From contig NZ_CP071793.1 in NCBI RefSeq assembly GCF_017498545.1, positions 7,558,256-7,622,255 of the forward strand: DNA of 64,000 nt, written 5' to 3'. How positions within the stretch are numbered: the first letter of the stretch is position 1; each line of letters begins with the position of its first letter. Under the pieces are notes generated by a model. The model searched no databases and had not been told where the DNA came from. It saw only the letters and a list, made by a program, of their open reading frames with translations. This stretch comes from Sulfidibacter corallicola. Lineage in GTDB: Bacteria; Acidobacteriota; Holophagae; Acanthopleuribacterales; Acanthopleuribacteraceae. This document shows, in pieces, positions 25,347-29,105 of this stretch. The position numbers and the translations under genes are program-made.

Positions 25347-25940
25347 TGTCCTAACGGGCATACCCAGTTCGTTTCCGAGAGAGAACAAGCCGATTCGAAG
25401 AGCCCGCATGAGCGTAAGCGACGTAAGGCCTGTAGGTTGAGCAGCTTGCTCAACCAATCGAAGCAAATCCCGCAGCGACATAACACCGTGCAAAAGAGCG
25501 GAGCGAACCCTTTTTGGTGAGGAGCATGCAAGGCGTGAATGTGCTTTGTTGTGAATTGTAATATACTGATATATAGCGGGTTGTGTTGGTGGGCCCGCCA
25601 TGGGGCGGTAGCAAACTGATGAACCTACATGCCCGGCGGCTCTCATGGACTATCGGGCTCTGTCGGAATGCGTTTCTAGTGGTGGGGCGCTTCGCGTTTG
25701 TGCGTGAGTCTTTTTTGCCACATGGGTCGCTTCGACTGGTTGAGCAGGGCCGGTAAGGCAGGCTGCTCAACCTACAGGCCTTACGCCCCTCTCGTGATGC
25801 GAACTTCTCGCAGATTGGGGCTTCGATGAACGCGCGACTGCCAACACAAAACGCTTCGCTCTTAAAGAATTCGAAAAGTTGGAGTTACATCGCTTCGATT
25901 GGTTGAGCAGGGCCGGTAAGGCAGGCTGCTCAACCTACAG
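25347..25940. repeat. Intergenic region with dispersed palindromic repeats
   Basis: A non-coding mosaic of short repeats. The unit GAGCAGGGCCGGTAAGGCAG followed by GCTGCTCAACCTACAGGCC occurs at about 25741-25780 and again at about 25904-25943. An inverted relative, GGCCTGTAGGTTGAG, is at 25424-25438. Each contains the CAACCTACAGG sequence that is the target of the nearby IS110 element. No gene with a ribosome-binding site is present. Confidence 0.7.
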
Positions 25941-26383
25941 GCCTTACGACCCTCTCAAGATGCGGGTACTTTGGACTTCACGGCTTTCGATTGGGGTCGT
26001 GAGGGAAATGATCGGCTTCGCTCTTTGGCTCAATTGATTGTTGTTGCTTGGGTTGCTTCGACGCGTCGGCCCAGCGGGCCAACCTACAGGCCTTACGACC
26101 CCCTCAAGATGCGGGTACTTTGGACTTCACGGCTTTCGATTGGGGTCGTGAGGGAAATGATCGGCTTCGCTCTTTGGCTCAATTGATTGTTGTTGCTTGG
26201 GTTGCTTCGACGCGTCGGCCCAGCGGGCCAACCTACAGGCCTTACGACCCCCTCAAGATGCGGGTACTTTGGACTTCACGGCTTTCGATTGGGGTCGTGA
26301 GGGAAATGATCGGCTTCGCTCTTTGGCTCAATTGATTGTTGTTGCTTGGGTTGCTTCGACGCGTCGGCCCAGCGGGCCAACCT
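25941..26383. repeat. 149-bp tandem repeat, three copies
   Basis: Three almost identical copies of a 149-bp unit start at 25941, 26090 and 26239. The last copy is cut by the IS110 element at 26383. Each unit starts GCCTTACGACC and ends AGCGGGCCAACCTACAG, so every junction carries a CAACCTACAGG target site. Because 149 is not a multiple of three, overlapping frames across the array appear as look-alike short reading frames that should not be called as genes. Confidence 0.92.
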
Positions 26384-26504
26384 GTACCATAGAGTTCAAG
26401 CTCTATGGTTAATATTCAGTTCGTCACAGCCGTAGCCTTTTTCTTTTTTTGCTTCTTTTTTTCTTTTTGTGGAAACTGTGAATCTTGTGGAAAACTTTTT
26501 AGGT

Positions 26505-26700
26505 AGACGGTTAGGCGACTCCGGCCGGCCGACCAGAGTCGCCGGGTGAGATGAAGCCTTCGACCAACCTGAGCGCCCTGGTGGGTAGCTCGTCTGTAGG
26601 ATTTTGCTCATCTCACCCTTTCCACACCGTTGAAAACCGCAGACTATCTGGGATTCTTCAAGTCCGTGTTTTTGCAGGTTTGGCTTTTGCGGTGTGTACC
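26505..26700 (+). ncRNA. Candidate bridge RNA of the IS110 element
   Basis: The non-coding left end folds into three elements: a 5' hairpin (GGCGACTC 26514-26521 with GAGTCGCC 26536-26543); a large loop closed by a perfect 11-bp stem (26544-26554 with 26608-26618); and a second loop closed by CACACCG (26623-26629) with CGGTGTG (26690-26696). The first loop contains CCAACCT (26564-26570), identical to the left target plus core. It also contains CTGTAGG (26594-26600), complementary to CCTACAG of the right target. The second loop contains CAGACTATC (26640-26648), identical to the last nine bases of the element at 27841-27849. It also contains TGCAGG (26673-26678), which can pair with CCTGTA at the donor junction using one G-U pair. 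This is the target-loop/donor-loop logic known for the IS621 bridge RNA. The exact RNA ends are not visible. Confidence 0.85.
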
Positions 26701-26734
26701 GTCCTTCACCTCTTCGGCATTGTGGAGGCTCTTC

Positions 26735-27796
26735 ATGACCAAGACCCTAACCGCCTGGACCGGCATTGACGTTAGCAAAAACACCTTCGATATCGCTTAT
26801 GTTTCCACCGAGAAAGGCGTCCCATTCGAGAAAGACATCCCATTTCACCGCATTCCCGCTCGTAAATTCCCAAGGACTCTCACAGGGGCAGAAGATGCCT
26901 TGACCTGGCTTGATGAGGCTCTTGGGTTTCCCGAACCTTTCAAAGAGCATGTCTGGGTCGTGATGGAGGACTGTGGAAGATACGCCGAGGAATTACGTTT
27001 GTGGCTGTCGATGAACAAGGGGCCATCCATCTGTATGATCACCCCCTCGCTCACGGCCGCTTACGCAAAAAGCCGAGGTCTTCGAAATAAAACCGATCGG
27101 GTGGATGCTCGATTGCTTGCCCTTTTCGGTCAAGAACGCAAACCTAAAATTCAAACGATTCCGAGTCGGACCTATCAGATTCTCAAGGACTTGTGGCGAT
27201 GCAGGCAGGAGTATGTCGAACTCCAGGTAGCCGAGGGGAATCGGGCAGGTCAGCCGCTGCAAATCGAAGCGGTTCAGAAGATTCGAAAAAAACATCTCAA
27301 GGAGCTACAAGACCATATCGATCGGGTCGAGAAGGAAATCAAAAAGCTTCTCAACCGGACCCCAAAACTCAAGAAGGATGTGGACTTGTTATGCACGATA
27401 AAAGGGATCGGTTTCCTCACTGCTGTAATGGTCATCGCTGAAATGGGAGATCTCCGAAGATTTGCGCGAAGCCGCCAAGTCGGTGCATTTGCAGGGTTAA
27501 ACCCGTCAAAGTTCGAATCGGGGACCTCGGTGAAAAAAACGACGATTATAAGTCGCAAAGGCTCAGCGGTACTGCGAGCGGGGCTTTACATGCCTGCGCT
27601 GACAGCCTGCCGTTTTAACGAACAAATGAAAACATTCTACGAGCGGTTGATACGCAAAGGAAAGTCGAAAAAGGCCGCTGTCGTGGCGGTCATGCGCAAA
27701 TTGTTGGTGCTCATGCGGGCAATTCTAAAAACAGGAGTTCCGTACCAGGAGGATTTTCAAAAGTGTGCGTCTGCGGAAAAGATGTGCAAAACCTGA
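26735..27796 (+). CDS. IS110-family transposase (RNA-guided recombinase type)
   Basis: A 353-residue DEDD recombinase. The N-terminal RuvC-like domain shows Asp12 in GIDVSK, Glu78 in VVMED, and Asp121 and Asp124 in KTDRVDARLLA. A coiled-coil region covers about residues 175-210 (KIRKKHLKEL and following). The C-terminal Transposase_20 domain shows IKGIGFLTAVMVIAEMG, FAGLNPS and the SRKGSAVLR segment, where Ser277 is the likely nucleophile. The ATG at 26735 is chosen because GGAGG lies 7 bases upstream (26723-26727). The longer frame from 26630 would overlap the candidate bridge RNA. Length and motifs are complete, with no frameshift, so the element may be active. The upstream position of the RNA matches the IS110 group rather than the IS1111 group. 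Confidence 0.95.
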   Translation: MTKTLTAWTGIDVSKNTFDIAYVSTEKGVPFEKDIPFHRIPARKFPRTLTGAEDALTWLDEALGFPEPFKEHVWVVMEDCGRYAEELRLWLSMNKGPSICMITPSLTAAYAKSRGLRNKTDRVDARLLALFGQERKPKIQTIPSRTYQILKDLWRCRQEYVELQVAEGNRAGQPLQIEAVQKIRKKHLKELQDHIDRVEKEIKKLLNRTPKLKKDVDLLCTIKGIGFLTAVMVIAEMGDLRRFARSRQVGAFAGLNPSKFESGTSVKKTTIISRKGSAVLRAGLYMPALTACRFNEQMKTFYERLIRKGKSKKAAVVAVMRKLLVLMRAILKTGVPYQEDFQKCASAEKMCKT

Positions 27797-27851
27797 CAAG
27801 ATTTCCGCATTCCTCCCCCAATTTTAGGGTTGACACACAACAGACTATCCT

Positions 27852-28130
27852 ACAGGCCTTACGCCACTTTCACGATGCGGGGGGCTGTGGACCTTGCGGC
27901 TTCGGACGCTCTGTCAGGGGAGAAAACGGCTTCGCTCTTTTCCCGCTCGATACTGCGCAGCCTTGATCCCTCGAAAAGTCGGGCTAGCGGCCATACCGGC
28001 CGTGCCCAACCTACTGCCGCGCCGACCCTCAAAGCATGCGGGAACTCCTCGCACGGGTCGCTTCGAAAAGTACATCCGGCGGATGTACCGACTGGGCACG
28101 ACGAATCTCTCGGCATTCCAAACCAACTTG
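27852..28130. repeat. Intergenic palindromic repeats downstream of the IS110 element
   Basis: Continues the interrupted target repeat (ACAGGCCTTACGCC). It contains a reverse-complement copy (28006-28047) of a unit also seen at 36588-36660 and 47156-47228. It also has the palindrome GTACATCCGGCGGATGTAC at 28070-28088, a member of the family seen at 39.2-39.4 kb. No gene is apparent. Confidence 0.75.
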
Positions 28131-29105
28131 TCACGGCGCACTTTTGCCGCGTTCGATGCGCAGCAGCACCAGCTCGCTCAGGTCGGCGATGATGCTGGCC
28201 CGCGCGGCGTCGATGTGCCCCGTTTCGGTCCAGATCAATTCCTTTGGATCCCCCGCGGACGCATGCAGTTTCTCGGCCGACCACTGGGGGATGCGCACGT
28301 CGTGGCGGGCGTTGATCTGTACGAAGGGCCGCGGGCTGATGTGCTGAACGTGCTGGTACGGCTCCAGCCGCGTCAGCAGCACCTGGCCCAGCTTGACCAG
28401 GCACGCGCGCAGGGGCCTGAAACGGATCTTGGGCTTCATGGTGTGCTCCAAGAGCCCGGGAATGTCGGCGCCGCCCTGGAGGCTCCATATCCGGGTGAAT
28501 CTTGGGTCGGCGGCACCGGCCACGATGGTGAAGAAGGAGCCCAGGCTGATGCCCACCAATTCGACCTGGCCGCCGTCCACATTCGGCAGCGTCAGCAGGT
28601 AATCCAGGGCCAGCAGGATCGCGGCGGGCGTGTCGTGCAGCCCGGCCCGCAGCTCGCGCAGGGCGATCAGGTACTCGACCCCGCTCATCCGCGTTTTGCC
28701 GCGGTAGGGATACGACAGGGCGACCACCACCATGTGCAGGTCTTCCTCCAGTAGCTTGATGGCGCGATGACCTCGATCGAAGCCACCGATCAGGATCACC
28801 ACCGGCAGCTTTTCCGGTTGGGGCCCGAGCGGACGGCGCACTGCCATGCGAAAGTGCATGCCACTGCTGGAGGTGAGCTCCAGGTACTCGATTTCCGAGG
28901 ATCGCCACGTTTCTGTCGCGGCGAAGGACGTCACGGAACTCAGGCTGCCGCGTCGTTCCTGGATGTAGTCGTCCAGGGGGCCGCTGTAGGCCAGGCCGTT
29001 GGGCCGCAGCCACAGCCAGGCGGCGACCATCAGGGCGATCGTGCACGGGGTTCCGATGAGGAGGGACCATTTGATCAGGCAGAATAGGCGACGCGTCGGC
29101 TTCAC
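28131..29105 (-). CDS. Membrane-anchored alpha/beta hydrolase
   Basis: A serine hydrolase of the alpha/beta fold, 324 residues from a GTG start at 29105. AGGAG lies 6 bases upstream of the GTG; an ATG 150 bases further upstream lacks such a site. An N-terminal transmembrane segment at residues about 11-33 suggests a membrane-anchored catalytic domain facing the periplasm. The fold is indicated by VVILIGGFDRGH (oxyanion region), the nucleophile elbow GISLGS (Ser187), the acid Asp269 in ARHDVRIP, and His297 in TGHIDA. The substrate is unknown; the family includes esterases, lipases and dienelactone-hydrolase-like proteins. It lies downstream of, and in the same orientation as, the regulator that ends at 29440, with a 334-base gap, so co-regulation is possible but not shown. 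Confidence 0.8.
   Translation of the reverse strand: MKPTRRLFCLIKWSLLIGTPCTIALMVAAWLWLRPNGLAYSGPLDDYIQERRGSLSSVTSFAATETWRSSEIEYLELTSSSGMHFRMAVRRPLGPQPEKLPVVILIGGFDRGHRAIKLLEEDLHMVVVALSYPYRGKTRMSGVEYLIALRELRAGLHDTPAAILLALDYLLTLPNVDGGQVELVGISLGSFFTIVAGAADPRFTRIWSLQGGADIPGLLEHTMKPKIRFRPLRACLVKLGQVLLTRLEPYQHVQHISPRPFVQINARHDVRIPQWSAEKLHASAGDPKELIWTETGHIDAARASIIADLSELVLLRIERGKSAP

What the first reader, a model, noticed from the sequence alone, without database searches (positions are those of the whole stretch)
26505..26700. IS110 element carries a readable bridge RNA whose four guides match target and donor
Seen in sequence: two stem-closed loops upstream of the transposase. The first holds CCAACCT and CTGTAGG, which read the insertion site CCAAC-CT-ACAG on opposite strands. 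The second holds CAGACTATC, identical to the last nine bases of the element, and TGCAGG, which pairs with the donor junction with one G-U pair. Known: IS621 of the IS110 family uses exactly such target-binding and donor-binding loops. Finding both guide pairs from sequence alone, with independent support from the flanking target, makes this a strong candidate for a new programmable-type bridge RNA with a different target.
Basis: partly seen in the sequence, partly recalled or inferred. Interest (0 to 1): 0.92.

Follow-up and report, generated by a model that had tools for sequence, protein, structure and literature searches.

The report
IS110 element with readable bridge RNA
A jumping gene in a coral-associated bacterium appears to carry an RNA whose loops match both its own ends and its landing site; it is a new member of a recently discovered RNA-guided class, with a possibly unusual two-base crossover site.

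Summary
The window carries a 1,466-bp IS110-group element (26384-27849 if the core is read as CT) in an 11,786,365-bp genome, the length published for Sulfidibacter corallicola M133T. Seven identical copies all sit in GGCCAACC-T-ACAG of a dispersed repeat. Segment 26505-26712 folds like the IS621 bridge RNA (z -4.3), and a covariance model built from 13 relatives only finds it as its single hit in 64 kb (19.4 bits, rough E 0.0017). Circularised, the ends form TTGACA-17-TACCAT.

A refinement may be new: aligned to relatives, the crossover core is probably CC, not the near-invariant CT. The base reading the second core position is A in 25 of 25 relatives (donor loop) and 22 of 22 (target loop), but G in both here. 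The recombinase's core-reading loop has T in 40 of 40 relatives, C here. Junctions cannot decide, and the left guide fits CT better. RNA expression and activity are untested.

The parts
26384..27849 (+). IS110-group element (1,466 bp between cores in the CT reading; 26383-27848 in the CC reading)
   Evidence: Seven identical copies with different flanks
26374..26383 (+). Left target half GGGCCAA-CC-T, last unit of a 149-bp tandem repeat array (25931-26383)
   Evidence: GGCCAACCT in 7 of 7 sites, the G before it in 5 of 7
27850..27855 (+). Right target half (CT)ACAG, 7 of 7 sites; the CCT at 27849-27851 is shared with the left junction, so core CC and core CT give the same product
27830..27835 (+). 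TTGACA in the right end, -35 of a promoter completed only in the circular form
   Evidence: RE-core-LE junction printed: 17 bases to TACCAT; IS621 (L049) has TTGCAG-17-TATTAT
26385..26390 (+). TACCAT in the left end, -10 of the junction promoter (4 of 6 to TATAAT)
26387..26408 (+). Perfect inverted repeat CCATAGAG-TTCAAG-CTCTATGG followed by a T-rich leader to about 26504; this left end measures 354 bp against 136-273 in 26 relatives
26505..26712 (+). Bridge RNA, predicted
   Evidence: Fold z -4.32; held-out covariance model hit 26539-26697, 19.4 bits
26514..26543 (+). 5' stem-loop (GGCGACTC...GAGTCGCC)
   Evidence: IS621 has a 5' stem-loop too
26544..26618 (+). Target-binding arm, closed by GGGTGAGATGA/TCATCTCACCC
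26562..26570 (+). Left target guide GACCAACCT, 8 of 9 to GGCCAACCT
26594..26600 (+). Right target guide CTGTAGG, pairs with CCTACAG; its 3' GG lies where 22 of 22 relatives with letters there have AG
26624..26695 (+). Donor-binding arm, closed by ACACCG/CGGTGT
26640..26648 (+). Left donor guide CAGACTATC, identical to the end of the element
26673..26678 (+). Right donor guide TGCAGG, pairs with CCTGTA with one G-T wobble; GG lies at the core-reading positions
26735..27796 (+). IS110-group DEDD recombinase, 353 aa; D12, E78, D121, D124, S262 invariant among 10 aligned; core-reading loop E78-D79-C80-G81

Best explanation
The element is an IS110-group (IS621-like) insertion sequence guided by a bridge RNA encoded in its left end. 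On excision the right and left ends join and complete a sigma-70-type promoter, from which the bridge RNA is transcribed. A recombinase tetramer uses the target-binding loop to read GGCCAACC/TACAG in the host's dispersed repeat, and the donor-binding loop to read the circle junction CAGACTAT-CC-TGTACC. [quoted passage not shown] Shown here: the sequences, ends, seven insertion sites, fold, family covariation of guides with targets, and conserved catalytic residues. Inferred from IS621: transcription, binding, cleavage and strand exchange. The core is more likely CC than CT (about 0.65 within this reading).
For: Recombinase matches ISCro4 and IS621 transposases (9t56, E 6e-47; 8wt6, E 3e-46) and PF01548 plus PF02371 above cut-offs. 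Seven identical copies at one target motif. Bridge-RNA fold and hits with two models built without it (R1 8.5 bits; R2 19.4 bits; the only hit in 64 kb each time). Guide-target covariation: left, 27 elements, 7.70 of 9 own versus 6.07 foreign, 0 of 100,000 permutations; right, 12 elements, 6.33 versus 5.23 of 7, 1 of 100,000. Circle-junction promoter, same geometry in IS621. For the CC core: the donor frame TAT-NN-TGTA aligns without gaps to relatives; the model aligns the window's G under the invariant A in both loops; the left donor guide then pairs at positions 1-8 and the wobble falls at donor position 12, both as in IS621 (PMC11208158 section 8); loop EDCG stands where 40 of 40 relatives have T at the third place.
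Against: No RNA or activity data. Eight of 27 elements have an own left match under 8 of 9, among them four viral-contig elements with the left end CTTGTCTTA (L059, L062, L067, L068). The window's right target, scored as a 7-mer in the CT frame, is matched as well by 9 of 11 foreign left ends. The R1 score is not significant (E 0.38) and the R2 score is modest; the strict-filter genome search listed no match in the window's own genome at E <= 0.01. Against CC: the second core base T is described as almost invariant (PMC11208158); the left target guide fits the CT frame better (8 versus 7 of 9); the free-position score is 14 of 15 for CT and 13 of 15 for CC, the latter reached by 219 of 11,292 control sites; CCT is shared, so junctions cannot decide.
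Confidence: 0.93

Rival explanations
1. Same bridge-RNA element, but the core is the canonical CT and the guides and donor have slipped by one base relative to IS621.
For: Left target guide fits the CT frame better (8 of 9 against 7 of 9), and so does the combined score (14 against 13 of 15). T at the second core position is almost invariant in orthologues (PMC11208158). The junctions fit either reading because CCT is shared.
Against: It needs a one-base slip in the donor frame and in both loops, while a substitution at each homologous position explains CC. The left donor guide would leave the first core base unpaired. The G-T wobble would move to donor position 11. The recombinase's core-reading loop is itself changed.
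Confidence: 0.33
2. The left end carries only the 5' leader of the recombinase mRNA; guide matches are chance or come from sequence shared by repeats, and target choice is by protein alone.
For: The single-element match is only moderately rare (4 of 5,330 CT-centred sites at 14 of 15). All seven targets are related repeat copies, so conservation at the site is partly by descent.
Against: Guides follow targets across relatives. Fold z -4.32, held-out model hit, and an experimentally established homologous mechanism (PMC11208160).
Confidence: 0.04
3. The seven copies arose by duplication of repeat blocks or homologous recombination rather than transposition.
For: All seven copies lie in one repeat family.
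Against: Flanking repeat sequence differs at each copy outside the shared site, and copies lie on both strands, far apart, with identical ends. Only 60-base flanks were compared by eye.
Confidence: 0.02

Closest known systems
IS621 (IS110 group, Escherichia coli)
   Same: Recombinase domains and catalytic residues; left-end RNA with 5' stem-loop, target arm and donor arm; guide order; junction promoter with 17-base spacing; targets in repeats; donor G-T wobble (PMC11208160, PMC11208158)
   Different: 34% protein identity; other target; core probably CC not CT; left end 354 bp against 188 bp by the same measure; seven-base right target guide against four
ISCro4 (solved structure 9t56)
   Same: Best protein match among solved structures, E 6.1e-47
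   Different: Bridge RNA, target and core of ISCro4 not examined here
IS1111 group (seekRNA elements)
   Same: Related DEDD recombinases and RNA-guided target choice (PMC11187229, abstract)
   Different: IS1111 elements usually have the RNA downstream of the gene (PMC11187229 abstract; PMC11208160 section 12); here it is upstream
Elements L092 and L093 (same class)
   Same: Relatives at 41% and 33% identity; read by eye, donor guide and donor end change together: GCA-AT with AT-TGCA in L092, GCG-AG with CT-CGTA in L093
   Different: They keep T as second core base and E-A-T in the loop; L031 in the same output does not fit this pattern cleanly

Membership tests
IS110 family | DEDD RuvC-like domain (PF01548) plus Transposase_20 (PF02371) | tested here: met
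   48.1 and 88.4 bits, cut-offs 29 and 21.3
IS110 family | Catalytic D, E, D, D and S | tested here: met
   D12, E78, D121, D124, S262 invariant in 10 of 10 aligned
IS110 group (IS621-like) | Long left end, short right end, RNA upstream of gene | tested here: met
   Left end 351 bp, right end 53 bp between gene and core in the CT reading
IS110 group (IS621-like) | Bridge RNA sharing structure and sequence with orthologues | tested here: met
   Held-out model R2: 19.4 bits, rough E 0.0017, only hit in 64 kb; R1 8.5 bits, E 0.38, not significant
IS110 group (IS621-like) | Guides complementary to own target and covarying among relatives | tested here: met
   27 elements, 0 of 100,000 permutations; 19 of 27 have at least 8 of 9, eight do not
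IS110 group (IS621-like) | Donor guides complementary to circle junction | tested here: met
   CAGACTATC and TGCAGG, by reading; no chance control was run for the donor guides
IS110 group (IS621-like) | CT core with near-invariant T at second position | tested here: inconclusive
   Frame of relatives gives CC; left guide and combined score favour CT; CCT shared
IS110 group (IS621-like) | Promoter rebuilt at the circle junction | tested here: met
   TTGACA-17-TACCAT; sequence match only, activity not tested
IS110 group (IS621-like) | RNA is transcribed and bound by the recombinase; RNA-guided recombination | not testable with these tools
   Needs small-RNA sequencing and a recombination assay
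IS1111 group | RNA in a long right end | tested here: not met
   Right end 53 bp; the model hit lies in the left end
IS1111 group | Subterminal inverted repeats of 7-17 bp | not tested
   Definition from PMC11208160 section 12; no repeat search of the ends was run

The most novel reading that the evidence does not exclude
A natural IS621-like recombinase that uses a CC core. The near-invariant second core base T has become C in donor and target. The core-reading bases of both loops have changed A to G to match. The core-reading loop of the protein has changed from E-A-T-G (IS621) to E-D-C-G. This would be a natural, fully compensated reprogramming of the core, the position that limits engineered bridge recombinases.
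Probability: 0.62. Interest if true: 0.55.

Novelty: new member of a known kind. Interest (0 to 1): 0.42.

Why it matters
It shows that a complete predicted bridge-RNA system (four guides, core, promoter, target) can be read from one genome and checked with copies and relatives. If the CC core holds, it is a natural answer to an open engineering question: the published core reprogramming changed the first core base (CT to AT, GT or TT), generally with lower efficiency (PMC11208160, passages), and the conserved second T was explained by a main-chain contact of G63 (PMC11208158 section 8). A natural enzyme that reads C there could widen the sites such recombinases can use, and it names two residues (D79, C80) to test.

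Tried and rejected
Rfam gave no match at E <= 1 in 25500-28500. It gave no match to the IS621 bridge RNA at E <= 0.1 either (three loci; its two weak matches in L049 lie elsewhere), so that absence says nothing. A DNA search of plasmids found no relative. The one genome-contig scan returned a single partial relative (L042), and a viral-contig scan with the single protein returned none. Promoter scanning found one site, inside the gene (27012-27039), and none in the left end. The 5' linker length of the target arm and the distance from right guide to 3' stem were considered as register evidence by reading; they vary among relatives and do not decide between CC and CT. Handshake pairing (PMC11208158 section 11) fits both registers by reading. 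Pattern searches for other CC-type loops among the 93 fetched loci found none, but the exact patterns were so narrow that this is weak. The first covariance model (R1) lacked the target-arm stem and scored the window at only 8.5 bits; R2 was given that stem and the inner hairpin by hand from reading A3. In one search, 3 of 29 sources (L029, L030, L092) gave no match at E <= 1 and are missing from the counts. Model hits L090 and L091 were not counted: the stretch of L091 read looked like coding sequence to me, and L090 was only partly read. In the guide test the window and 53 loci were examined: 24 had no left-end motif or had it at the edge of the locus, and 3 were dropped (L032 partial gene, L066 same as L067, L085 an IS621 copy), leaving 27. 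Structure prediction was not used. On rechecking I lowered the CC odds from 0.66 to 0.62, because the CC-frame control had been left out.

Full report
WHAT IS THERE. The window is 7,558,256-7,622,255 of a one-contig genome of 11,786,365 bp. That is exactly the length published for the complete genome of Sulfidibacter corallicola M133T (PMC8841776, passages seen), so I take this as the host. The element lies at 26384-27849 with the bases CCT shared by both junctions. Seven copies exist, identical over all 1,466 bp, on both strands and far apart, with different flanks. The same seven are the only Transposase_20 matches in the genome at E <= 0.001. All seven sit in GGCCAACC-T-ACAG. The surroundings are a dispersed, partly tandem 149-bp repeat. 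The 14-mer GGCCAACCTACAGG occurs in this genome 188 times with up to one mismatch, 94 of them exact by my count of the listing, against 15 for the reversed control. In the six other genomes of the family searched it occurs 0-5 times each. The target is thus a repeat abundant in this genome only, comparable to REP sequences for IS621.

THE RECOMBINASE. The 353-residue protein (26735-27796 with its stop) matches ISCro4 and IS621 transposases (E 6e-47 and 3e-46), PF01548 and PF02371. The five catalytic residues of IS621 named in PMC11208158 (passages) have counterparts D12, E78, D121, D124 and S262, invariant in 10 of 10 aligned proteins.

THE RNA. 26505-26712 folds to -88.0 kcal/mol against -66.9 for shuffles (z -4.32) as 5' stem-loop, target arm and donor arm, the layout IS621 shows (z -3.36; PMC11208158). 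In the lone-strand fold some guide bases pair weakly within the arms. With the leader the z-score falls to -2.76. To test membership without circularity, 13 relatives were aligned without the window (A3). The RNAalifold model scored the window 8.5 bits, E 0.38. With the target-arm stem and inner hairpin added by hand it scored 19.4 bits, rough E 0.0017. Both times the window's only hit was 26539-26697. Of 27 other loci given to R2, 13 matched at E <= 1, two of them only in part. A strict-filter scan of 396 genomes listed no match in the window's own genome at E <= 0.01, so by this model the RNA is a divergent member.

DO GUIDES FOLLOW TARGETS? Of 54 sequences (the window and 53 loci), 30 had a usable left-end motif and 27 were kept (see Tried and rejected). 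Ends were placed by motifs of the donor ends, not by the guides. The left target (7 bases plus core) matched the own left end at 7.70 of 9 on average and foreign ones at 6.07; 0 of 100,000 permutations did as well. 19 of 27 had at least 8 of 9; eight did not. For right targets (12 elements) the values were 6.33 and 5.23 of 7, 1 of 100,000. The window scores 8 of 9 on the left, reached by one of 26 foreign left ends; on the right its 6 of 7 is reached by 9 of 11 foreign ones in that frame. For the window alone, with guide positions free, 4 of 5,330 CT-centred sites (one of them the real target) score as well. Elements are related, so the permutation figure overstates independence. The set L076, L078, L079 is clean: they share ACATCCT, differ at the two bases before it only in the first (C, T or G before GACATCCT), and each guide carries its own version. 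No chance control was run for the donor guides.

PROMOTER AT THE CIRCLE JUNCTION. The right end carries TTGACA and, 17 bases later across the core, the left end has TACCAT. IS621 has TTGCAG and TATTAT at the same spacing. PMC11208160 (section 5) reports that this junction drives its bridge RNA. Here the left end is 354 bp by the measure, against 136-273 in 26 relatives. The extra leader begins with a perfect 8-bp inverted repeat (26387-26408) and has a T-rich tract. If the junction promoter is used, the primary transcript would be about 315 nt and may be processed; this is unexplained.

THE CORE. Of the relatives with both ends placed, eight (two of them IS621 copies) read TAT-CT-TGTA at the donor junction, L074 reads TAT-CT-TATA, and four with the other left-end type (L059, L062, L066, L067) read ATA-CT-TGTC. 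This element reads TAT-CC-TGTA. In the model alignment of 26 matches from 29 sources (13 of the matches are training sequences), the donor-loop base that reads the second core base is A in 25 of 25 relatives, and the target-loop base is A in 22 of 22 with letters there. The window has G in both. In this frame the left donor guide pairs over positions 1-8, the right target guide over 8-14, and the G-T wobble falls on donor position 12, as in IS621 or its extended-guide form (PMC11208158 section 8; PMC11208160 passages). The protein loop that touches the core (E60-A61-T62-G63 in IS621) has T at the third place in 38 of the 38 loci given (three are IS621 copies; one has D for E) and in L092 and L093; here it is E-D-C-G. 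I therefore favour a CC core. Against it: the second T is called almost invariant (PMC11208158); the left target guide fits CT by one base better; in the free-position control the CC frame scores 13 of 15, reached by 219 of 11,292 CC-centred sites, against 14 of 15 for CT; and the shared CCT makes the two readings indistinguishable from junctions.

NOVELTY. The mechanism is published (PMC11208160: outline, sections 5 and 12 and passages seen; PMC11208158: sections 8 and 11 and passages; PMC11187229: outline with abstract, and section 13). Their supplementary data were not read, so a CC core may be among the thousands of natural sites in PMC11208160. My paper searches looked for bridge RNA, ISCro4, seekRNA and core dinucleotides, not for CC as such, and cover only open-licence papers; I saw no CC core in the listings or in what I read. 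The CC core, if right, is a natural compensated variant of a known system.

Noticed in passing
window 25931-26383 and about 27850-28118; genome-wide: A dispersed, partly tandem repeat (149-bp unit, containing the palindrome-like GGCCCAGCGGGCC next to the target), with 188 target 14-mers at up to one mismatch in this genome and 0-5 in six family members; its origin and role are unknown.
   Followed up: partly
window 26384-26504: Left-end leader about 120 bp long between the junction promoter and the bridge RNA, with a perfect inverted repeat and a T-rich tract; the left end is the longest of the 27 measured.
   Followed up: partly
window 1694-23206 (+): Open reading frame of 7,170 aa made of many similar repeats with a hydrophobic C-terminal end; looks like a giant surface protein (no family search was run).
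   Followed up: no
L092, L093: Class relatives in which donor guide and donor end appear to change together: core AT with loop GCA-AT (L092), donor position 10 C with loop G (L093) (read by eye).
   Followed up: partly
L033 (genome G004, same family): IS621-like relative whose recombinase match falls in two frames, suggesting decay, but with a well-matching bridge RNA (83.5 bits, a training sequence).
   Followed up: partly
L076, upstream of the gene at 1201: The left-end start and part of the left end are duplicated in tandem in a Pantoea plasmid element.
   Followed up: no
L049, L051, L078: Rfam 15 gave no match to the bridge RNA of IS621 or of two relatives at E <= 0.1, so annotation by Rfam would miss this class.
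   Followed up: yes
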